Shown: piece by piece, positions 31,360 through 62,200 of the stretch | Position numbering within the stretch: position 1 is the first letter of the stretch | Layout of the letters: each line of letters starts with the position of its first letter | Assembly (NCBI RefSeq): GCF_030530745.1 | Contig: NZ_JAUMUI010000006.1 | Location: 29,548-93,547, forward strand | From: Neisseria sp. | GTDB taxonomy: Bacteria; Pseudomonadota; Gammaproteobacteria; Burkholderiales; Neisseriaceae | Reading direction: 5' to 3' | Length of the DNA stretch: 64,000 nt | Position numbers and translations under genes: made by a program | Notes under the pieces: generated by a model | Told to the model about the DNA's origin: nothing | Seen by the model: only the letters and a program-made list of their open reading frames with translations | Database searches by the model: none

Positions 31360-32352
31360 ATGCAGAATTTAAAATCCATTTTCGTACTCTACACCGGCGG
31401 CACCATCGGCATGAGCCAAAGCGGGCAGGGCCTGCGCCCCGATACCGCGCTGGCGGGGAAGGCACTGGTGCCGTTTGCCGGCCGTTTCCGTTTCGACTGG
31501 CACTTATGCGATCCGTTAATCGACTCTTCGGCGGTTACGCTTGACGATTGGCAAGGCTGGCTGCAACTTGCGGCAGAAAAAATCCCGCAATACGACGGCG
31601 TGCTGGTGCTGCACGGCACCGACACGCTGGCCTATGCGGCCAACCTGTTCGCGCTCGCCCTGCAGGGTTTGGACAAGCCCGTGGTGCTGACCGGTTCGCA
31701 ATGGCCTTACGATGCCGAAAACAGCGATGCGCCGCTTAATCTCGCCACCGCCGTGGCCGCTTTCGAGCTGGATTTGCGCGAAACTGTGATTGCCTTTAAC
31801 GGCAAACTGTTCCCCGCCGTGGGCAGCAGCAAAATCAGCACCGAAAGTGCGGCGGGCTTCGGCAACCCGCATTTCGGCGTGTTGGCGGAATGGTCGCCCG
31901 AACAAAACTGGCACAACGTGCGCATCAGGCCGTCTGAAAAAACAGCGCAGGCTTTGCAGGTGCGCCCGTTGAGCGCGCAGGCCAAAGTGGTTTGCACCAC
32001 CCTGATTCCCGGTTTTGCCGCACAAGCCTTTGCAAACGGCCTCGGCAGCAGCGGCGCAGATGCCGTGGTGCTGCAAAGCTACGGCCACGGCAACGCGCCC
32101 GCAGATGCCGGTTTTATCGAAGCCGTGCGGCAGTTCACCGCCAAAGGCGGCCTGCTGCTCAACATCAGCCAAGTGCAGCAAGGCAACGCCGCCGCCGTAT
32201 ATGCGCAGGGCAGTGCGCTGCGCCAAGCGGGCGTGGTGAACGGCGGCAAAGCCAATTTGGAAACCGCCGCCGTTTTGCTGACGCTGGCGGTCAGCGGCGG
32301 CTGGCAGGCTGAGCGCTTACGGCAGGAGTTGGTTGGTTTGGGGCTGGTGTAG
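31360..32352 (+). CDS. ansA: L-asparaginase, type I
   Basis: A 330-residue amidohydrolase that hydrolyses asparagine to aspartate and ammonia. Both catalytic threonine motifs are intact: LYTGGTIGMS and LHGTDTLAYAA. There is no signal peptide, so it is the cytoplasmic type I enzyme. An AG-DUS lies inside the gene near 31928. It directly precedes the allantoin genes but has its own terminator. Confidence 0.9.
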   Translation: MQNLKSIFVLYTGGTIGMSQSGQGLRPDTALAGKALVPFAGRFRFDWHLCDPLIDSSAVTLDDWQGWLQLAAEKIPQYDGVLVLHGTDTLAYAANLFALALQGLDKPVVLTGSQWPYDAENSDAPLNLATAVAAFELDLRETVIAFNGKLFPAVGSSKISTESAAGFGNPHFGVLAEWSPEQNWHNVRIRPSEKTAQALQVRPLSAQAKVVCTTLIPGFAAQAFANGLGSSGADAVVLQSYGHGNAPADAGFIEAVRQFTAKGGLLLNISQVQQGNAAAVYAQGSALRQAGVVNGGKANLETAAVLLTLAVSGGWQAERLRQELVGLGLV

Positions 32353-32560: not shown

Positions 32561-33337
32561 ATGCCGGGTTATCCGCAAGATATTTTACAAAACCGTTCGG
32601 TAGTCAAACACGGAAATTATGCGGTTATTACACCGCAAGGCCGCGTAATCAATGTGGTTCCGGGAATTGAAGACTGCCAGATGACCATTCTGGCCACACC
32701 GAAAATGGGTGCAAGTTTCGTCCAGTTAATCGGCCAATTGGGTGCAAATGCGAAAACCACACTGGCCTATGGTGCCAAGCCGCATGAAGAGGCCTTTATT
32801 TATCTGCTCGACGGCGAAGCCGAGCTGAAAGTAACGGTCGGTGGTGAAAGCCGTGTGCTGAAGCAGGGCGGTTATGCCTACGCGCCGCCCGGAGCGGGCA
32901 TCGGTTTTGAAAACAGCAATCATCAGGCCGGACGCATTTTGCTCTACAAACAGCGTTATGTAGAGCATCCGGCGGGACTGAAACCTTATACGGTATTCGG
33001 CAGTGTACATGATATCGAATGGGCGGATTACGACGGTATGGCCAATGTGCATATTAAAGATTTGCTGCCTATCGAGCAGAATTTCGATATGAATATGCAT
33101 ATTTTGAGCTTCGACCCGGGTGCCAGCCACAACATCATCGAAACCCATGTTCAGGAGCACGGTGCCTATGTGTATGAAGGGCAGGGCTGCTATCTGCTTG
33201 ATGAAAACTGGTATTTGATTAAGGAAGAAGACTTTATCTGGTTCGGCCCGTACTGCAAACAAGCTTCCTATGCCGTAGGACGCGGACCGTTTACCTATAT
33301 TTATTCCAAAGACTGCCACCGCGACGTGGAAATTTGA
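32561..33337 (+). CDS. allE: (S)-ureidoglycine aminohydrolase
   Basis: A 258-residue bicupin that converts (S)-ureidoglycine to (S)-ureidoglycolate and ammonia. It aligns well with E. coli AllE, including FDMNMHILSFDPGASH, ETHVQEHGAY with ligands Glu194, His196 and His200, Gln234 in KQASYAVGRG, and the C-terminal YSKDCHRDVEI. It opens the allantoin set. A good GAGAACG ribosome site precedes the ATG. Confidence 0.93.
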   Translation: MPGYPQDILQNRSVVKHGNYAVITPQGRVINVVPGIEDCQMTILATPKMGASFVQLIGQLGANAKTTLAYGAKPHEEAFIYLLDGEAELKVTVGGESRVLKQGGYAYAPPGAGIGFENSNHQAGRILLYKQRYVEHPAGLKPYTVFGSVHDIEWADYDGMANVHIKDLLPIEQNFDMNMHILSFDPGASHNIIETHVQEHGAYVYEGQGCYLLDENWYLIKEEDFIWFGPYCKQASYAVGRGPFTYIYSKDCHRDVEI

Positions 33338-33349
33338 ACAACCGCAAAC

Positions 33350-33386
33350 AGGCCGTCTGAAAGCCTGAAATTCTTTTCAGACGGCC
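33350..33386. repeat. Inverted DUS pair between allE and the carbamoyltransferase gene
   Basis: AG-DUS arms with a 14-base loop. It is inside a set of same-strand genes, so it may reduce rather than end transcription. Confidence 0.5.
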
Positions 33387-33405
33387 ATCACAAAGGAGCA
33401 TTATC

Positions 33406-34434
33406 ATGGCTTTAGACAAAAACTTCAAAACTTTAGATATCCGAGAAACCTTGGCCGCCACCAATATGCGCGGCAAAAACATCACTTTTTTGGACGATTT
33501 TAAGCGCGAAGAAATCCTTTCGCTGTTTAAGGCGGCCGAAATGATGGAGCCGTTTTTGCGCACGGGGCTCGACCTGCTGAAAGGCAAGGTGCTCTATACC
33601 CTGTTTTTCCAACCTTCCACGCGCACCCGCTGCAGCCACGAAAATGCCATGCTGCGTTTGGGCGGCGGCGTGATTACCGAGTCCGATCCGCAGCACAATG
33701 CCGCCGTGGCGAAAAACGAGAGCCTTTACGACACGCTGCGGGTAACGTCGGAATACGCCGATGTAATCGTGATGCGCCACCCCGACGATAAAGAAGCCTT
33801 GGGCGCATTAGACGAGTTGGGCAGCTACGTTTCGCCGGTGATTTCGGGCGGCTACGGCCACGTTACCCACCCGACGCAGGGCTTGCTCGACTGCTATACC
33901 TGCTGGCGCGCGTTCGGCGATTTGAGCAATGCCACGGTTGCCATTGCCACCCCCGATCTTTCACGCGCACGTTCCGGCCAGTCGTTTGCGCTGGCGCTGG
34001 CTTCGATGGGTGCCAAGATTATCTACACCGGTACCAGCGAGCTGCGAACCCCCGAAGTGGTGCGCGACAAGCTCAAAGCGATGGGTGCGCATTTCGAAGA
34101 ACATTTCGACTTAACCGAAAAGCAAAACGAAGAGCTTTATGCCGAAAATGCGGTGGATTTGATTTATCTGCCGGGCTGTTCGGTGAAAAAAGACGACCCC
34201 AACCGCGAAGACTTCATGAAGAAAATGATGAACTATTATATTTCGCTCGATATGCTGCAACGCATCAAAGCGAAAAGCGGCAAGGTAGTCGGCGTACACC
34301 ACTCTTTACCGCGAAACCCGGGCGAATTTGATTTCAGCATCGACAACACCGAACACCAGTTGTATTTCCGTGCGATCGGCTTCTCGGTAGCGGTGCGGAT
34401 GGCACTGTTGAGCGCGGTTGTCGGCGTAGACTGA
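33406..34434 (+). CDS. Aspartate/ornithine-type carbamoyltransferase, likely ureidoglycine carbamoyltransferase
   Basis: A 342-residue transcarbamylase. The carbamoyl-phosphate motif is STRTRCSHE (residues 71-79), with HPTQGLLD (155-162) and HHSLPR (298-303). The ornithine-binding DxxxSMG loop expected in ArgF is absent; the matching region reads LPGCSVKKDDP. Its place between allE and allB and beside arcC argues for a catabolic role that releases carbamoyl phosphate. A ureidoglycine carbamoyltransferase, which would act on allantoate in reverse, has been proposed for similar genes. Oxalurate or ureidoglycolate are other possible substrates. Confidence 0.8.
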   Translation: MALDKNFKTLDIRETLAATNMRGKNITFLDDFKREEILSLFKAAEMMEPFLRTGLDLLKGKVLYTLFFQPSTRTRCSHENAMLRLGGGVITESDPQHNAAVAKNESLYDTLRVTSEYADVIVMRHPDDKEALGALDELGSYVSPVISGGYGHVTHPTQGLLDCYTCWRAFGDLSNATVAIATPDLSRARSGQSFALALASMGAKIIYTGTSELRTPEVVRDKLKAMGAHFEEHFDLTEKQNEELYAENAVDLIYLPGCSVKKDDPNREDFMKKMMNYYISLDMLQRIKAKSGKVVGVHHSLPRNPGEFDFSIDNTEHQLYFRAIGFSVAVRMALLSAVVGVD

Positions 34435-34522
34435 ATCTGCCTCAGAGTAAGCCGAAAAACAGTGGGCTGCCGCTGGTTGTTCGGGCGGCAGCCTGTTTGA
34501 CAGAAACTTAAGGAGTTGTGTC

Positions 34523-35947
34523 ATGAGTGCGCAAAAACCAAAAAAATCTTTCAAAATGCCCGATATTTATATTGTGCTGGCAGTATTTATTTTAGTGGTT
34601 GCCGCGCTGACCTATATTGTTCCGGCGGGTGAGTACGAACGGCAGGCCATCGAAACCTCTCACGGTGTGCAAAACCTGGTGGTGGCGGGAACCTATCACC
34701 AAATCGAACAGCAGCCCGTAGGCTTTATGGATTTGGTAACCGCCATTCCCGACGGCCTGAAACGGGCGGCGGGCATTGTGTTTCTCACATTTATGGTAGG
34801 CGGCTGTATGGGTTTGATCAAACGTGCAGGGCTGATTGATATGGGTGTGCAGAAACTGAGCACGGCCGTAGGCAATAAAGATATTCTGGTGATTCCGATT
34901 TTAATCACGATTTTTGCCGGGCTGGCTGCATTTATCGGCGTGCCTGAGCTGTCGCTGGCTTACCTGCCCGTGCTGCTGCCGCTGTTTTACCGCTTGGGCT
35001 ACGACGGCATGACGGCAATGGCGGTGGCGCTTTTGGGGCCCTGTATGGGTTTTACATTCGGTCTGACCATTCCGGGTTCTGTCGGGGTGGGGCAGCAGAT
35101 TGCCCAACTGCCGATGTTTTCAGGCTCGGCTTTCCGCGCAGTAGTGTTGGCATGCGTGGTGCTGATTGTCATTCTGTATGTGATGCGCTATGCCGTTAAA
35201 GTGAAGCGTAACCCCGAGGCCAGCCTCACTTACGAGAGCGACCGCGAAATGCGTGCCAAATTGGCTGCGGAAGATACGGAAAAAGGTGAAATGGTGTTCA
35301 ACGCGCGCCAGAAATATGCCGGTATCGCCTGCATGGTTCTGTTTCCGGTTGCCATTGTCATGATTTTGAAAAACAACTTGGGGTTTGAGGCCATCGGCGG
35401 GCTGTTTCTCTTTATCGGTATCGCCGCAGCCGCCGTTGCAGGCAAATCGGCACAGCAGATTTGCGACGATGTGAATGCAGGTATGCGCGATATGATGGTG
35501 GCAGCACTGTTGTGCGGCGTGGCCTCTGCCATTGCCGTGGTGATGGATAAAGGTGTGATTACCGATACCTTGGTGTTTTGGCTCGAAAGCATGATGCGTT
35601 CGGTGCCGCCGGAACTTACCGCTATTGCGATTTTCTGGGAGCAGTCGTTGTTTAACTTTCTGATTCCGGGCGCAACCGCTCTGACCGTATTGACTATGCC
35701 GATTATTTCGCCTTTGGCCAGCCTGCTTGATATTTCGCAACAGGCGGTGGTGTCGGCCAACGCATGGGGCGGACAGCTTACCGATATTTTCTTCCCCACT
35801 TCCGGTTTCTTTGTAGCCACGCTGGTGATTGCCAAGGTGGAATACGGTAAATGGCTGCGTTTCTATACCCCGCTGATGCTGATGCTCGGCCTGCTTGCCA
35901 GCGTTGCGCTCTATTTCATGCAGTCTGCCGGTATTGGTGCGATGTAG
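34523..35947 (+). CDS. YfcC-family (DcuC-like) membrane carrier
   Basis: A 474-residue polytopic protein with about 11-12 hydrophobic segments of the YfcC/C4-dicarboxylate anaerobic carrier family: YIVPAGEYERQ near residue 33, GGCMGLIKRAG and ISPLASLLDISQQAVVSANA. Members carry carboxylates, amino acids or peptides. Within the allantoin set it could move allantoate, ureidoglycolate or another product. This substrate is a guess from position. Confidence 0.8.
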   Translation: MSAQKPKKSFKMPDIYIVLAVFILVVAALTYIVPAGEYERQAIETSHGVQNLVVAGTYHQIEQQPVGFMDLVTAIPDGLKRAAGIVFLTFMVGGCMGLIKRAGLIDMGVQKLSTAVGNKDILVIPILITIFAGLAAFIGVPELSLAYLPVLLPLFYRLGYDGMTAMAVALLGPCMGFTFGLTIPGSVGVGQQIAQLPMFSGSAFRAVVLACVVLIVILYVMRYAVKVKRNPEASLTYESDREMRAKLAAEDTEKGEMVFNARQKYAGIACMVLFPVAIVMILKNNLGFEAIGGLFLFIGIAAAAVAGKSAQQICDDVNAGMRDMMVAALLCGVASAIAVVMDKGVITDTLVFWLESMMRSVPPELTAIAIFWEQSLFNFLIPGATALTVLTMPIISPLASLLDISQQAVVSANAWGGQLTDIFFPTSGFFVATLVIAKVEYGKWLRFYTPLMLMLGLLASVALYFMQSAGIGAM

Positions 35948-35955
35948 CTTGGTTT

Positions 35956-35994
35956 TTCAGACGGCCTGATGTTTTAAACAATAGGCCGTCTGAA
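35956..35994. repeat. Inverted DUS pair before allB
   Basis: DUS arms separated by 15 bases; the second arm ends 14 bases before the allB start, close to the ribosome site GAAGGAGAA. A terminator role would cut allB off from the upstream genes. Confidence 0.5.
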
Positions 35995-36008
35995 AGAAGG
36001 AGAACGAA

Positions 36009-37370
36009 ATGTATGATTTACTGATTAAGAACGGCTTGTTGGTTTTGCCGGAGCAAATGCTGCACGGCGATATTGCAGTGAAAGACGGAAAAATAGCCGC
36101 CATTGCGCCCCGGCTTGAGGGCAGTGCCGGAAAAACCGTCGATGCCCGCCACTGCTATGTGCTGCCCGGTATGGTAGACGTGCATATGCATATTTCCGAG
36201 CCGGGCCGTACCGAGTGGGAAGGTTACGTTACCGGCACGCAGGCGATGGCCGCAGGCGGCACGACTTCTTATGTGGAAATGCCGCTCAACACCATTCCCG
36301 CCACCATCGATGCGGAAACGATGGAAATCAAACGCCGCGCCGCCGAAGGGCAGAACCATGTGGACTATGCGTTTTTCGGCGGACTTGTGCCGCACAACAT
36401 CGACAAGCTCAAAGAACTTTCCCAAGCGGGCGCGGCCGCCTTCAAAGCCTTCGTCGCCACCTGCGGTTCCGACAAACCCGGCGATTTTAAAAACGTAACC
36501 GATTTCGAGCTGTACGAAGGCATGAAAGTATTGGCCGAAACAGGCGATTTGCTGGTAGTGCACTGCGAAAACGCCACGCTCACCGACGGCTTGGGGCGCA
36601 AAGCCAAAGCGGAAGGCAAAACCCTGGTCAGCGACTATGTGGCCACCCGCCCGGTTTTCACCGAAGTCGAAGCCGTCCGCCGCGTTTTGTATCTGGCCGA
36701 ACAGACCGGCTGCCGCATCCACATTGCCCATTGCAGCTGCGCCGAAGCCGTAGAAGCCGTTTTGGAAGCCCGGGCGCGCGGCGTCGATGCCAGCTGCGAG
36801 AGCTGCGTGCACTACCTGCTCTTGGCCACCGAAGATTTGGACGCCATCGGTCCCAAAGCCAAATGTTCGCCCCCCATACGCGACCGCGCCCACCAGGCGC
36901 AGCTTTGGCGGCTTTTGGAAGAAGGTATCTTGGACATCATCTGTTCCGATCACTCGCCCTGCACGCCTGATTTGAAAGCCGATCCCAACGCATTCAAAGC
37001 ATGGGGCGGTATTTCGGGCTGCCAAAACAGCGTGGACGCGCTGTTTGATGCAGCGGTCAAACAGCGCAACATCAGCCCTGTGGTACTGATGAATGCACTG
37101 GCCACCCGCCCCGCCGAACGCTTCGGTCTGATCGACAAAGGCGCACTGGCCTTGGGTAAAGATGCCGACATCGTGTTGCTCGATCCCAACCAAAGCTACA
37201 CGCTGACTGCCGACAAACTCTTCTACAAAAACAAATTCAGCGCCTACGAAGGCATGGAAATCGGCTGCCGCATCAGCGCCACGTTTGTGCGCGGACAGGA
37301 AGTCTATTCGCTGGAGCGCGGTTTCGGCAAACCGTCGGGCATCAGAACCCGTTTGCGTAAAGACGTTTGA
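36009..37370 (+). CDS. allB: Allantoinase
   Basis: A 453-residue cyclic amidohydrolase that opens allantoin to allantoate. The full metal set is present: His59 and His61 (DVHMHISEPGRTEWEGY), carboxylated Lys146 (AAAFKAFVATCG), His185, His241 and Asp314 (SDHSPC). Along its length it matches E. coli AllB more closely than hydantoinases or dihydroorotases, for example EMPLNTIPATID and AKCSPPIRD. GAAGGAG precedes the start. Confidence 0.95.
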   Translation: MYDLLIKNGLLVLPEQMLHGDIAVKDGKIAAIAPRLEGSAGKTVDARHCYVLPGMVDVHMHISEPGRTEWEGYVTGTQAMAAGGTTSYVEMPLNTIPATIDAETMEIKRRAAEGQNHVDYAFFGGLVPHNIDKLKELSQAGAAAFKAFVATCGSDKPGDFKNVTDFELYEGMKVLAETGDLLVVHCENATLTDGLGRKAKAEGKTLVSDYVATRPVFTEVEAVRRVLYLAEQTGCRIHIAHCSCAEAVEAVLEARARGVDASCESCVHYLLLATEDLDAIGPKAKCSPPIRDRAHQAQLWRLLEEGILDIICSDHSPCTPDLKADPNAFKAWGGISGCQNSVDALFDAAVKQRNISPVVLMNALATRPAERFGLIDKGALALGKDADIVLLDPNQSYTLTADKLFYKNKFSAYEGMEIGCRISATFVRGQEVYSLERGFGKPSGIRTRLRKDV

Positions 37371-37382
37371 CGCAGCAAGGTT

Positions 37383-37418
37383 TTCAGACTGCCTGATTTG
37401 ACCGGCAGGCCGTCTGAA
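37383..37418. repeat. Inverted DUS pair between allB and arcC, one arm degenerate
   Basis: TTCAGACTGCCT faces AGGCCGTCTGAA, one base off, with a 12-base loop. Confidence 0.5.
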
Positions 37419-37453
37419 TTCCCCGGTATTATTTCAGATTAAAGGAGATGACC

Positions 37454-38383
37454 ATGAGAATCGTTATTGCACTGGGCGGCAACGCCCTGCTCAAACGCGG
37501 AGAGCCGTTAACTTCTTCCAATCAGAGGGCCAACGTGCGCGAAGCCTGCGAACAAATCGCCAAAATCTATCCGGGCAACCAACTTATCATTACTCACGGC
37601 AACGGGCCGCAAGTCGGCCTGATGGCTTTGCAGAGCAATGCTTACAAAGATGTGCCCATGTATCCGCTTGATGTTTTGGGTGCGGAATCGGTCGGCATGA
37701 TCGGCTATATGATTCAGCAGGAGCTGGCCAATTTCGTGCCTAAAGAGGCTTCGCTGACCACCGTGTTAACCCAAACCGAAGTCGATCCCAAAGACCCTGC
37801 CTTCCAAAAACCGAGCAAGCCGGTCGGTCCCGTATACAGCAAAGAAGAAGCCGATGCCGTCGCCGCCGAAAAAGGTTGGACGATGGCTCAAGACAACGAC
37901 AAATACCGCCGTGTCGTCCCAAGCCCGCTGCCCACGCGTATTTTCGGGCTTAAGCCGTTGAAAACCCTTATCGAAAACAACTATATATTGATTTGCGCGG
38001 GCGGCGGCGGGATTCCCACCTATTACGACGAATCGGGAAGATTGTGCGGTGCCGAGGCGGTGATAGATAAAGACTTGGCTACAGCTTTGCTGGCCGCGTC
38101 GGTAGATGCCGATATGTTGGTTATCGCTACCGACATTGATGGTGTCTACCTTGACTGGGGTACGGAAAAGCAGCGCCTTGTGCATGCGGCAAACCCTGAT
38201 GAAATCGAAAAAATCGATTTTGCCGCAGGCTCGATGGGGCCGAAAGTCCAAGCGGCGGCCAATTTTGCCCGTTCAACCGGCAAAACAGCAGTAATCGGCG
38301 CTTTGCGCGATATCGAACGCATCGTGTCGGGAGGGGCGGGCACGCGCATCAGCACAGGAACCTGCGGCATCAGATGCCGTTGA
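37454..38383 (+). CDS. arcC: Carbamate kinase
   Basis: A 309-residue kinase that uses carbamoyl phosphate to make ATP, CO2 and ammonia. Marks: [43 protein letters not shown] and [16 protein letters not shown] 37454 is preferred to 37448 because the latter abuts AAAGGAG. No arginine deiminase gene is near, so its carbamoyl phosphate probably comes from the carbamoyltransferase of this set. Confidence 0.93.
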
Positions 38384-38411
38384 AACTCCGTTTTGCAAAC
38401 AGAAATACTTC

Positions 38412-38460
38412 GGGCCGTCTGAAACCGTTTTCCTGTTTGAAAAACGGTTTCAGACGGCCC
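38412..38460. terminator. Strong extended DUS-pair terminator after arcC
   Basis: A 20-base perfect stem begins with the DUS (GGGCCGTCTGAAACCGTTTT) and closes with its complement around an 8-base loop. It ends the catabolic part of the allantoin set. Confidence 0.85.
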
Positions 38461-38531
38461 AAGCCTATGTTTTATTCTGTCTGCCTCTGTTTGTGATTTT
38501 GGCAATTATCAAATAATTTATTTTTTCATTA

Positions 38532-38693
38532 GGGGCTGTCGACATTTAACCGACGAAGCGGTTTTTTGAGGCAAAAACCGCGTATGCCAGGCAAAAAGCG
38601 CAGCAAGGTTGAACACCTTGCGAGCATTTTTAACGCCGCAGACGGGGTATTTTGGCCAAAAATACCGCCGTTGCGTTGAATGTTGACAGACCC
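38532..38693. repeat. MITE-like element family A, copy 3
   Basis: 162 bases with inverted ends (GGGGCTGTCGACATT and AATGTTGACAGACCC) and TA on both sides, closely matching copy 1. It lies between arcC and the regulator gene. The rest of the gap, to 38838, holds a TATAAT at 38783-38788 that may serve the regulator. Confidence 0.78.
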
Positions 38694-38838
38694 TAGGGCA
38701 TTGTATGCCGATAATTTTCTTATTTTTATCAATTTTTGCCTGTTTTGCGCATCGGTTTCGGCAGTGCAGAGTGATTGTTAAATATAATTGCCTAAATAGT
38801 TAAAATTTTATATCGAAGAAGGCAGAGGAGAAAATGAG

Positions 38839-39891
38839 ATGGCAACCGGAAAAAATACCGTTCATGCCCACGTGGCCGGACACAGTGTATTGGCAAGCTG
38901 GGTTTCTTCTATCTGCCAGACGGCACGGGGTTACGGTGTCGACCCGCTGCCGCTCCTCTCCCGCTCGAATCTGGACGCAAGGCTGCTGCACATTCCCGAT
39001 GCGCGTTTTCCCGTGGAAGACGTGCGCCGCTTTTGGAATGCTCTGATTCAGGCGACGGGCGATCCGCTGTTCGGCCTGCAGGTGGGCAGGGAGATTCAGG
39101 CGCCCGCCCTGCAGGGTTTGGGCCTGGCTGTGATCTCGTGCGGCTCGCTGTCTGATTTGATGATGATGATGGTGCGCTACTGTCAGATGATTTCCACTAC
39201 CATGAGAATCAGTTTCGATCATCCGCCCGAACTGAAAGGCACCAAGCTGGTTTTGCATTCCGAGGGCGGCTCCGAGCCGATGAATTCGGCGCGGCTGGCG
39301 GTTTTGGCCTTTATCTACCGTCAGGCATGCAGCCTGGCGCAACACCCTGTCAAACCTGTTTCTGTAACCTTGTCGATACCCTCCTGCGGCGGCACTGAGC
39401 GTTTGGACGGCTATTTTCAGACGGCCGTCAACCTGGGTTGCGAAAAAGATTCGATCAGCTTTGCCTATGCAGACACGATAGAGCCTTATGCAGGTGCAAA
39501 CCCGCAACTTGCGGATATGAATGCGGCCGTGGTCGGCCGTTATCTGAACCGCTTGAGAAAAATGGATACCGCCGCACAGGTGGACAGGCTGATACGCGAT
39601 GAACTGAAAAACGGTGAGCCCGGCCTGTGCGGCATTGCCGCCAAACTCCACCTGTCGCCGCGCACCCTGCAGCGCCGCCTGAACGAAGGCGGGCATTCTT
39701 TCAGCAGCCTGCTCGACGGTATCCGCCGCGATATGGCGCACGATTTGCTGATGCACAGTAATGCCAGCATAACCGAAATCGGCTTCAGGCTCGGTTTTTC
39801 TGATTTGAGCAATTTCATCCGTGCCTGCCGCCGCTGGTTCGGCTGCACGCCCCAACAGCACAGGGAAAGCAGCCTGCTTATCGGTGTTTGA
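38839..39891 (+). CDS. AraC-family transcriptional regulator
   Basis: A 350-residue regulator. The N-terminal two-thirds resembles the arabinose-binding-type domain (PF12625 class: VEDVRRFWNALIQATGDPLF). Residues from about 255 carry two helix-turn-helix units, with GIAAKLHLSPRTLQRRLNEG and ITEIGFRLGFSDLSNFIRAC. It lies between arcC and the permease and is likely to control the allantoin genes. The effector is unknown. GGAGAAAATGAG precedes the start. Confidence 0.88.
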   Translation: MATGKNTVHAHVAGHSVLASWVSSICQTARGYGVDPLPLLSRSNLDARLLHIPDARFPVEDVRRFWNALIQATGDPLFGLQVGREIQAPALQGLGLAVISCGSLSDLMMMMVRYCQMISTTMRISFDHPPELKGTKLVLHSEGGSEPMNSARLAVLAFIYRQACSLAQHPVKPVSVTLSIPSCGGTERLDGYFQTAVNLGCEKDSISFAYADTIEPYAGANPQLADMNAAVVGRYLNRLRKMDTAAQVDRLIRDELKNGEPGLCGIAAKLHLSPRTLQRRLNEGGHSFSSLLDGIRRDMAHDLLMHSNASITEIGFRLGFSDLSNFIRACRRWFGCTPQQHRESSLLIGV

Positions 39892-40146
39892 ACGCCGGCA
39901 GCCGGCAGCGGTCGTATGGCGCGGAACAACAGGTGCTTGTCGCATGATGACAGGGTGTATCCGTCCTGTTTTTATATAGTGGATATAAGAGTGTGTTTGA
40001 ACGGCGCGGCGGGCCGGCGGTTTTGTTTGAAACGTTTCGGCAGAAATGTCAAACAGCCCGTTTCAGACAGGAAAACGCAGGCAGTTGCAGATACCGCCGC
40101 AGAAATGAAACGGCTCGGCCGCAACTACGGTTAGAAAGGGACTGCC
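39892..40146. other. Gap between regulator and permease
   Basis: No convincing gene. A lone TATAGTGGAT at about 39974 resembles one end of a Correia element without its partner. The permease ribosome site GAAAGGG is at the end. Confidence 0.4.
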
Positions 40147-41607
40147 ATGCCTGTGTATATCAAAAAGCTGAAGTCTGCCAAACCCGATACCCCGCGCTTG
40201 AGCAACGACGACCTCCTGCCGGCTAAACAGAACTGGAACTGGTACAACATCTTTGCGTTTTGGATGTCGGATGTGCACAGTGTCGGCGGTTATGTTTTTG
40301 CCGGTACGCTGTTCGCACTGGGGCTGACTTCGTGGGAGATTCTGTTTACGCTCGTCGGGGGCATTTCCATCGTGATGGTGCTGGCCAACCTGCTGGCCAA
40401 GCCCAGCCAGGCCTCGGGTGTGCCCTATCCTGTGATTGCGCGGATGTCGTTCGGCGTATACGGGGCCAATATTCCCGCCCTGCTGCGCGGCATCATCGCC
40501 ATCGTGTGGTACGGCATTCAAACCTATCTCGCTTCGGTTGCGCTTACCATCATTCTGTTGAAGTTTTTCCCGCAACTGGCCGTTTGGCAGCAACAGTCGT
40601 TTCTCGGTCTTTCGCACTTGGGCTGGCTGAGCTTTTTTATCATGTGGACGGCGCAAACCGCCCTGTTCCTGATGAAGATGGATGCAATCAAGGTGTTTCT
40701 GGATTATTCGGGGCCGGCCGTTTACAGCGTGATGTTCTTATTGATGATTTGGATTGTGTATAAGGCGGGATGGGAAAACATCAGTTTTTCACTTTCTTCG
40801 GAAAAGCTGGATTTTTGGCGTACTTTGGGCGCAATACTGGTAGGCATGTCGCTGATTGTGAATTATTTTGCCGGACCTACATTGAATTTCGGCGATTTTT
40901 CACGCTACTGCCGCAGCATGAAAGATGTGAAAACGGGAAATTTCTGGGGGCTGCCGGTCAACTTTACCGCTTTTGCGCTGACTGTGGTCATCACCATTAC
41001 CGGCACGCCGGTTATTTTCGGCCGGATGATTATCGACCCCATGGGCATCGTGGCCAAAATGGACAATATCGGCATTGTGCTGCTGCTGGCGTTTACCTTC
41101 GTTACCGCTACGGTGGGCACCAATATCGTGGCTAATTTCGTTTCGGCCGCCAACGATATTTCAAACCTCTATCCCGGCCGCATCAGCTGGCGCACCGGCG
41201 GCATGGTTGCGGCCGTACTGTCTGTGATAATCACACCGTGGAACCTCTACAGCTCGCCCGAAGTGATCCACTATACCATCGACCTGCTGGCCGGTACGCT
41301 CGGGCCGATGTACGGTATCATTTTGGTGGATTATTATCTGCTGAGGAAACGGGTGATCCAAGTTGACGATTTGTTCGACGATTCTCCCAAAGGCATTTAT
41401 TGGTATCAAAACGGCTATAACCGTGCAGCGGTTAAATCCATGATTCCCGCTTCATGCCTCAGCATAGGCATCGTGCTGCTGGCCGATTTCGGCCAAGGCA
41501 ACCCGATAATGCGTGCCATAGGCAGCCTGGCGCCTTTTTCGCTGGTAATCAGTGCCATAGTGGGCGGGGTTCTTTATTACCATCTCAGTGTAAAAAAACC
41601 TGAATAA
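40147..41607 (+). CDS. NCS1-family permease, probably for allantoin
   Basis: A 486-residue transporter of the nucleobase-cation-symport-1 family with about 12 membrane segments. Marks: RLSNDDLLPAKQNWNWYNIF, FAFWMSDVHSVGGYV, and NFGDFSRYC in the middle. NCS1 members carry allantoin, uracil, cytosine, hydantoins or thiamine. The neighbours make allantoin the best guess; the fold alone does not decide it. Confidence 0.87.
   Translation: MPVYIKKLKSAKPDTPRLSNDDLLPAKQNWNWYNIFAFWMSDVHSVGGYVFAGTLFALGLTSWEILFTLVGGISIVMVLANLLAKPSQASGVPYPVIARMSFGVYGANIPALLRGIIAIVWYGIQTYLASVALTIILLKFFPQLAVWQQQSFLGLSHLGWLSFFIMWTAQTALFLMKMDAIKVFLDYSGPAVYSVMFLLMIWIVYKAGWENISFSLSSEKLDFWRTLGAILVGMSLIVNYFAGPTLNFGDFSRYCRSMKDVKTGNFWGLPVNFTAFALTVVITITGTPVIFGRMIIDPMGIVAKMDNIGIVLLLAFTFVTATVGTNIVANFVSAANDISNLYPGRISWRTGGMVAAVLSVIITPWNLYSSPEVIHYTIDLLAGTLGPMYGIILVDYYLLRKRVIQVDDLFDDSPKGIYWYQNGYNRAAVKSMIPASCLSIGIVLLADFGQGNPIMRAIGSLAPFSLVISAIVGGVLYYHLSVKKPE

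Positions 41608-60477: not shown

Positions 60478-62200
<1,723 letters not shown>

What the first reader, a model, noticed from the sequence alone, without database searches (positions are those of the whole stretch)
32561..41607. Allantoin-use gene set without AllC, AllD, AllA or FdrA
Seen: AllE, an ATC/OTC-fold carbamoyltransferase, a YfcC carrier, AllB, carbamate kinase, an AraC regulator and an NCS1 permease lie in one direction. Known: E. coli uses AllC for allantoate and AllD plus an FdrA-type oxamate carbamoyltransferase to reach carbamoyl phosphate. None of these is here. Inference: a shorter route in which phosphorolysis of allantoate gives ureidoglycine and carbamoyl phosphate; AllE and ArcC then yield ureidoglycolate, ammonia and one ATP. 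Such a route conserves energy where AllC would waste it, and allantoin use is not a usual trait of Neisseria.
Basis: partly seen in the sequence, partly recalled or inferred. Interest (0 to 1): 0.78.

Follow-up and report, generated by a model that had tools for sequence, protein, structure and literature searches.

The report
Allantoin cluster saving one ATP
A small set of genes in a Neisseria lets it, very probably, break down allantoin by splitting its ring-opened form with phosphate so that one ATP is gained; the key reaction was shown in another bacterium in 2013, but this version, which seems to stop half way, I did not find described.

Summary
In detail: seven genes run in one direction at 32561-41607, and the genome (99.76% complete) has no match to AllC, AllA, AllD-family or AllG models. 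The proposed reaction, allantoate + phosphate -> ureidoglycine + carbamoyl phosphate, is not new: Barba et al. 2013 (PMC4016543) assayed it for Rubrobacter xylanophilus Rxyl_2847 (UGTCase). The window enzyme has nearly all residues that Shi et al. 2015 (PMC4581275) list for that protein and lost the ATCase aspartate motif; Barba's table disagrees with Shi on the motif, which I could not settle. What is added: allE and the transcarbamylase are neighbours in 17 of 17 loci, 13 with the order allE-UGTCase-yfcC-allB-arcC; both occur in the same 7 of 84 Neisseriaceae genomes; those 7 lack AllA, AllD-family and AllG proteins, so the route seems to end at ureidoglycolate, exported or decaying. I read it as an allantoin counterpart of the arginine-deiminase pathway. 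New variant of a known kind; activity is inferred, not shown.

The parts
32561..33337 (+). allE, (S)-ureidoglycine aminohydrolase, 258 aa
   Evidence: TIGR03214 323 bits, cut-off 200; closest solved chain is 1rc6, YlbA, 273 bits
33406..34434 (+). ATCase-branch transcarbamylase, proposed ureidoglycine transcarbamylase (UGTCase), 342 aa
   Evidence: ATCase model 188.9 bits under cut-off 236.95; STRT, R124, HPTQ, R189, GCSVKK, HHSLP; own clade apart from 7 ATCases
34523..35947 (+). YfcC/DcuC-family carrier, 474 aa; substrate unknown, proposed carrier of ureidoglycolate or allantoate
   Evidence: PF03606 284 bits; YfcC model 219 of 500; a match in 17 of 17 loci, weakest 41% identity in L030
36009..37370 (+). 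allB, allantoinase, 453 aa
   Evidence: TIGR03178 582 bits, cut-off 358; closest solved chains 8hfd and 3e74, both allantoinases
37448..38383 (+). carbamate kinase, 311 aa
   Evidence: NF009008 475 bits, cut-off 361; TIGR00746 405, cut-off 358; closest solved chain 8crv, carbamate kinase
38839..39891 (+). AraC-type regulator, 350 aa, possible regulator of the block
   Evidence: PF12625 and PF12833; in 9 of 17 loci within the stretches held
40147..41607 (+). NCS1-family permease, 486 aa, possible allantoin uptake
   Evidence: PF02133 292 bits; allantoin-permease model 257 of 620, so substrate not fixed; in 9 of 17 loci within the stretches held

Best explanation
An energy-conserving allantoin block. 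The NCS1 permease takes up allantoin (inferred); AllB opens it to allantoate (family known); the transcarbamylase splits one ureido group with phosphate, giving (S)-ureidoglycine and carbamoyl phosphate (shown for Rubrobacter Rxyl_2847, inferred here); AllE removes ammonia, which pulls the unfavourable phosphorolysis forward (AllE family known, pulling inferred); carbamate kinase makes ATP, CO2 and ammonia. Net: one ATP and two ammonia per allantoin, as in the AllC route but with the ATP gained. Ureidoglycolate is not the substrate of any enzyme family that I found in the genome; it is exported, perhaps by the YfcC-type carrier, or decays to glyoxylate and urea (both inferred).
For: Family cut-offs for AllE, AllB, ArcC. 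The transcarbamylase is no ATCase: under cut-off, PyrB elsewhere, RxQxxER loop lost and HPLP changed to HSLP in 17 of 17 block members, while carbamoyl-phosphate residues and R189 stay. Residues agree with those Shi 2015 lists for Rubrobacter UGTCase save one. UGTCase phosphorolysis measured by Barba 2013. allE and UGTCase neighbours in 17 of 17 loci, full order in 13; same 7 of 84 Neisseriaceae genomes. AllC, AllA, AllD-family, AllG absent from the genome.
Against: No activity is shown for this protein. I could not obtain the Rxyl_2847 sequence, so shared descent with the assayed enzyme is not tested. Barba's Table 1 gives Rubrobacter's subgroup other motifs (HPLA, AIx), and the row that fits the window (H[ST]LP, GX[SC]) is labelled as the subgroup of Nocardioides, with no tested function. 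S102 of the Rubrobacter list is alanine (A99) in the window. Five of 13 block-bearing genomes searched also hold a hydantoinase/AllC-type match over cut-off. The permease and carrier are far under their specific cut-offs, so allantoin uptake is unproved.
Confidence: 0.8

Rival explanations
1. The transcarbamylase cleaves both ureido groups: first allantoate, then, after AllE, ureidoglycolate, giving a second carbamoyl phosphate plus glyoxylate and ammonia. The route would then not be a dead end and would yield two ATP.
For: No AllA, AllD-family or AllG protein in the 7 Neisseriaceae genomes with the block, so something must deal with ureidoglycolate; Barba 2013 could not at first exclude a promiscuous activity down to glyoxylate.
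Against: Ureidoglycolate carries a hydroxyl where ureidoglycine carries an amine; no enzyme with that activity is known to me; the dead end is tolerable if the product is exported or decays.
Confidence: 0.12
2. Allantoate is hydrolysed by a non-homologous or unrecognised amidohydrolase, and the transcarbamylase acts on ureidoglycolate or another ureido acid.
For: Two M20 peptidases exist in the genome; hydantoinase-type matches over cut-off occur in 5 of 13 block-bearing genomes searched.
Against: The AllC model reports neither M20 protein; one reaches 20.6 of 204 bits for TIGR01879, and 8 of 13 genomes, the seven Neisseriaceae among them, have none over the cut-off.
Confidence: 0.06
3. The block serves another cyclic ureide, and AllB- and AllE-like proteins act on its analogues.
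For: The permease and carrier are far under their specific cut-offs.
Against: AllB and AllE pass equivalog cut-offs with wide margins and the nearest solved chains are allantoinases and YlbA.
Confidence: 0.05

Closest known systems
Rubrobacter xylanophilus UGTCase cluster (Rxyl_2840-2850; Barba et al. 2013, PMC4016543)
   Same: Allantoinase, ATCase-like transcarbamylase and carbamate kinase together; same proposed reaction, assayed there.
   Different: No allE or YfcC gene is named in Barba's Table 2, but one neighbour, Rxyl_2846, is listed as unknown and I could not read it. The deamination was tentatively given to an asparaginase-like protein. Uricase and other purine genes lie there too; none is in the window block.
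E. coli anaerobic allantoin route (AllB, AllC, AllE, AllD, AllFGH, AllK; PMC11326118, passages read)
   Same: AllB, AllE and a catabolic carbamate kinase; ATP from carbamoyl phosphate.
   Different: E. coli makes carbamoyl phosphate at the end, from oxalurate, by AllFGH, which shows no similarity to known transcarbamylases; the window makes it early and its genome lacks AllC, AllD-family, AllA and AllG.
Arginine and agmatine deiminase pathways (recalled)
   Same: Ammonia-releasing enzyme, catabolic transcarbamylase, carbamate kinase and a membrane carrier in one block.
   Different: Substrate and ammonia-releasing enzyme differ; there the carrier is a known antiporter, here its substrate is unknown.
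E. coli YgeW transcarbamylase
   Same: Transcarbamylase beside carbamate kinase and a cyclic amidohydrolase (recalled).
   Different: YgeW is of the knotted branch (title cited); the window protein matches the ATCase branch by sequence.

Membership tests
UGTCase | Carbamoyl-phosphate residues STRT, R, HPTQ | tested here: met
   S71-T74, R124, H155-Q158; kept in 17 of 17 proteins, save Q158 which is P in one, L030
UGTCase | H(T/S)LP motif and R189, S258, K261 equivalents (Shi 2015) | tested here: met
   HSLP 299-302, R189, S259, K262. Spacings STRT-R-H, Q-R189-S-HxLP: window 50/31/31/70/41 and E. coli ATCase, counted from R of RxQ, 50/29/30/62/37; Rubrobacter 49/29/31/69/40, worked out by hand from the numbers. 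Only the last two tell them apart. S102 of the list is A99 here
UGTCase | Subgroup motif in Barba 2013 Table 1 | tested here: inconclusive
   Window has HSLP and GCS, the row labelled pseudo-ATCase 2; Barba's text puts Rubrobacter in subgroup 1 (row HPLA, AIx), whereas Shi gives Rubrobacter T298 in H(T/S)LP
UGTCase | Allantoinase and carbamate kinase beside it | tested here: met
   full block order in 13 of 17 loci
UGTCase | Same clade as Rxyl_2847 | not tested
   Sequence not reached: the one genome-contig scan gave 13 loci, none of Rubrobacter
UGTCase | Phosphorolysis of allantoate | not testable with these tools
   Needs an assay
ATCase (PyrB) | Curated cut-off; RxQxxER loop; HPLP | tested here: not met
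   188.9 against 236.95 bits; loop and motif absent; PyrB elsewhere
YgeW knotted transcarbamylases | Sequence kin to YgeW | tested here: not met
   No chain named YgeW among the 60 shown of 75 solved matches, the best ones ATCases; no model of that name among the 15 NCBIfam matches
E. coli allantoin route | AllC, AllD or AllA, AllFGH | tested here: not met
   0 matches in the genome for AllC, AllA, the AllD family and AllG; AllF and AllH not searched
(S)-ureidoglycine aminohydrolase AllE | TIGR03214 cut-off | tested here: met
   323 against 200 bits
Arginine-deiminase-like pathway | Carrier exchanges substrate for end product | not testable with these tools
   A YfcC-type gene lies in 17 of 17 loci; its substrate is unknown

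The most novel reading that the evidence does not exclude
A self-contained allantoin fermentation, built like the arginine-deiminase pathway and shared among several families of Pseudomonadota, mouth and gut genera among them: transcarbamylase, AllE and carbamate kinase gain one ATP per allantoin, and the YfcC-type carrier exports ureidoglycolate, perhaps in exchange for allantoate or allantoin, so that neither AllA nor AllD is needed.
Probability: 0.35. Interest if true: 0.6.

Novelty: new variant of a known kind. Interest (0 to 1): 0.42.

Why it matters
It gives a likely physiological setting to an enzyme whose reaction was assayed, as far as I found, only from one thermophile; it offers AllE for the deamination that Barba 2013 tentatively gave to an asparaginase-like protein; and it suggests that Neisseria, Cardiobacterium and Sutterella species with the block could draw ATP and nitrogen from allantoin, releasing ureidoglycolate or its decay products. 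It also bears on annotation: the protein's best family model is aspartate carbamoyltransferase, under its cut-off.

Tried and rejected
Upstream asparaginase as part of the block (Rubrobacter and Kistimonas also have an asparaginase nearby): set aside for Neisseria, because in 4 of 6 other Neisseriaceae loci (L014-L017) the stretch held has no match to it at E 1e-15. Plasmid search for distant relatives: 200 records, all under 60% identity, 40 listed; the six fetched are ATCases by motif. Promoter and terminator scan: 9 and 19 sites against 7.3 and 14.1 in shuffles, no use. Papers on YfcC as an antiporter: two listed, not read, and none in a second search; on ureidoglycolate half-life: none. 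A first mapping of residue numbers by a fixed offset did not fit and was replaced. One search stopped with an error after 19 rows (17 block members, own and E. coli PyrB), which are the rows cited; its Rubrobacter line did not run and was worked out by hand. The row own_OTC was a fragment and was left out of the tree (24 of 25 rows); that tree warns of long ATCase branches. The alignment for the structure job used 15 of 17 sequences. The four genome searches with 13 block-bearing genomes leave out four of the 17 (those of L020, L024, L027, L030).
Full report
What is there. Seven intact ORFs on the + strand, 32561-41607: allE, an ATCase-like transcarbamylase, a YfcC/DcuC carrier, allB, carbamate kinase, an AraC regulator, an NCS1 permease. 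The first five are spaced by 68, 88, 61 and 77 bases; the regulator and permease follow after 455 and 255 bases. AllE, AllB and carbamate kinase pass curated cut-offs with wide margins; the transcarbamylase does not pass the ATCase cut-off (188.9 against 236.95 bits), and the carrier, regulator and permease are placed only at family level. The uptake word AGGCCGTCTGAA occurs 60 times in the window, also in gaps of the block, which fits Neisseria (recalled dialect), as do the nearest loci, one named Neisseria dentiae.

What is absent. In the window's genome (2.28 Mb, 53 contigs, 99.76% complete) there is no match at E 0.001 to AllC, the AllA family, the AllD family or AllG of the oxamate transcarbamylase; each model rang in E. 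coli. Two M20 peptidases are present; one reaches 20.6 of 204 bits for the AllC/hydantoinase-type model TIGR01879. AllF, AllH and urease were not searched.

What the transcarbamylase is. It is 35% identical to the genome's own PyrB (PyrB by motif). In 17 of 17 members of its clade the residues STRT, R124, H155 and R189 are kept (Q158 in 16 of 17), while the aspartate-binding loop RxQxxER is replaced by PG[CS]S[VL]KKDD and HPLP by HSLP. R189 corresponds to the ATCase arginine that holds the alpha-carboxylate, and the lost arginine to the one that holds the side-chain carboxylate (roles recalled): the change fits a substrate with one carboxylate and a neutral ureido arm. The 17 proteins form one side of a 100/100 branch against 7 ATCases, several on long branches; this shows separateness, not function.

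The published precedent. Shi et al. (PMC4581275) list its residues: S74-T77, R126, H155, Q158, R189, S258, K261, T298, L299, S102, K106. The window has S71-T74, R124, H155, Q158, R189, S259, K262, S300 (serine allowed by H(T/S)LP), L301 and K103; S102 is A99 here and serine in 11 of the 17 proteins. The two spacings around the substrate loop, 70 and 41, lie nearer to Rubrobacter's 69 and 40 (worked out by hand) than to E. coli ATCase's 62 and 37; the other three spacings do not tell them apart. Against this, Barba's Table 1 gives HPLA and AIx to subgroup 1, in which the text puts Rubrobacter, and H[ST]LP and GX[SC], which the window has, to subgroup 2 (Nocardioides only). The two papers disagree. 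Row 2 lists alternatives although its subgroup has one organism, so the labels may be swapped, but I could not get the sequence to decide.

How the block is kept. Seventeen distinct loci were compared: the window, six Neisseriaceae regions and ten of the 13 loci (L018, L019 and L028 have the contig lengths of three of the six regions and were not counted twice). allE and UGTCase are neighbours in 17 of 17, and a YfcC-type match lies in all 17. The order allE-UGTCase-yfcC-allB-arcC holds in 13 of 17 (one, Cardiobacterium valvarum, with a second YfcC gene inside). The other four: Sutterella wadsworthensis has all five rearranged; L027 ends in yfcC; Kistimonas (L029) and an Oceanospirillales MAG (L030) have other genes between UGTCase and yfcC and no carbamate kinase, L030 no allB either, within the stretch held. 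The AraC gene and the NCS1 gene were each found in 9 of 17. In Neisseria the block lies beside an asparaginase gene in the window and two others, and beside an adenylate kinase gene in L014. In 84 Neisseriaceae genomes the UGTCase occurs in 7 at E 1e-90 and AllE over its cut-off in the same 7; seven further genomes have AllE-model matches of 19-26 bits, far under it. In an even sample of 397 genomes of the phylum only the window's own has the UGTCase at E 1e-55. The protein is 81-87% identical to those of Cardiobacteriaceae, Saezia and Sutterella, so spread by transfer is likely (inference).

Where the route ends. Thirteen of the 17 block-bearing genomes were searched. None has AllA, one has AllG, four have an AllD-family protein (the family is wider than AllD) and five a hydantoinase/AllC-type match over cut-off, one of them with a stop inside. 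The seven Neisseriaceae genomes have no AllA, AllG or AllD-family match and no TIGR01879 match over cut-off (five of the seven have matches far under it). So in them ureidoglycolate appears to be the last intermediate for which I found a known enzyme. It is moderately stable and decays to glyoxylate and urea (PMC3793230, passage). Export by the conserved carrier is my preferred reading: with a carrier, a transcarbamylase, an ammonia-releasing enzyme and carbamate kinase the block has the make-up of the arginine-deiminase pathway (recalled). That is inference; nothing tested the carrier.

Novelty. The reaction is known. I found no description of an AllE-UGTCase-YfcC-AllB-ArcC block, nor of allantoin use by Neisseria through it, in seven full-text searches of an open-licence library, which lacks most subscription papers. 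One neighbour of the Rubrobacter enzyme, Rxyl_2846, is listed as unknown, so an AllE there is not excluded.

Noticed in passing
31360-32352: Asparaginase gene directly upstream of allE; the Rubrobacter cluster and Kistimonas (L029:5907-7010) also have an asparaginase near the transcarbamylase. In 4 of 6 other Neisseriaceae loci it is not in the stretch held.
   Followed up: partly
L029:13067-19027: Kistimonas asteriae carries two YfcC genes and two AllB genes beside the block (the second AllB cut by the stretch end); a glutathione-transferase-like gene follows the transcarbamylase.
   Followed up: partly
L021:11590-13014: Cardiobacterium valvarum has a second YfcC-family gene inside the block.
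   Followed up: no
60478-61818: NADP-specific glutamate dehydrogenase, a possible sink for the ammonia released; of ten right-side proteins scanned, others are nqrA, nqrB, nqrF, ccoG and the like.
   Followed up: no
33406-34434: Two papers give different motifs for the Rubrobacter UGTCase (PMC4016543 Table 1 and PMC4581275); the table's labels for subgroups 1 and 2 may be swapped.
   Followed up: partly
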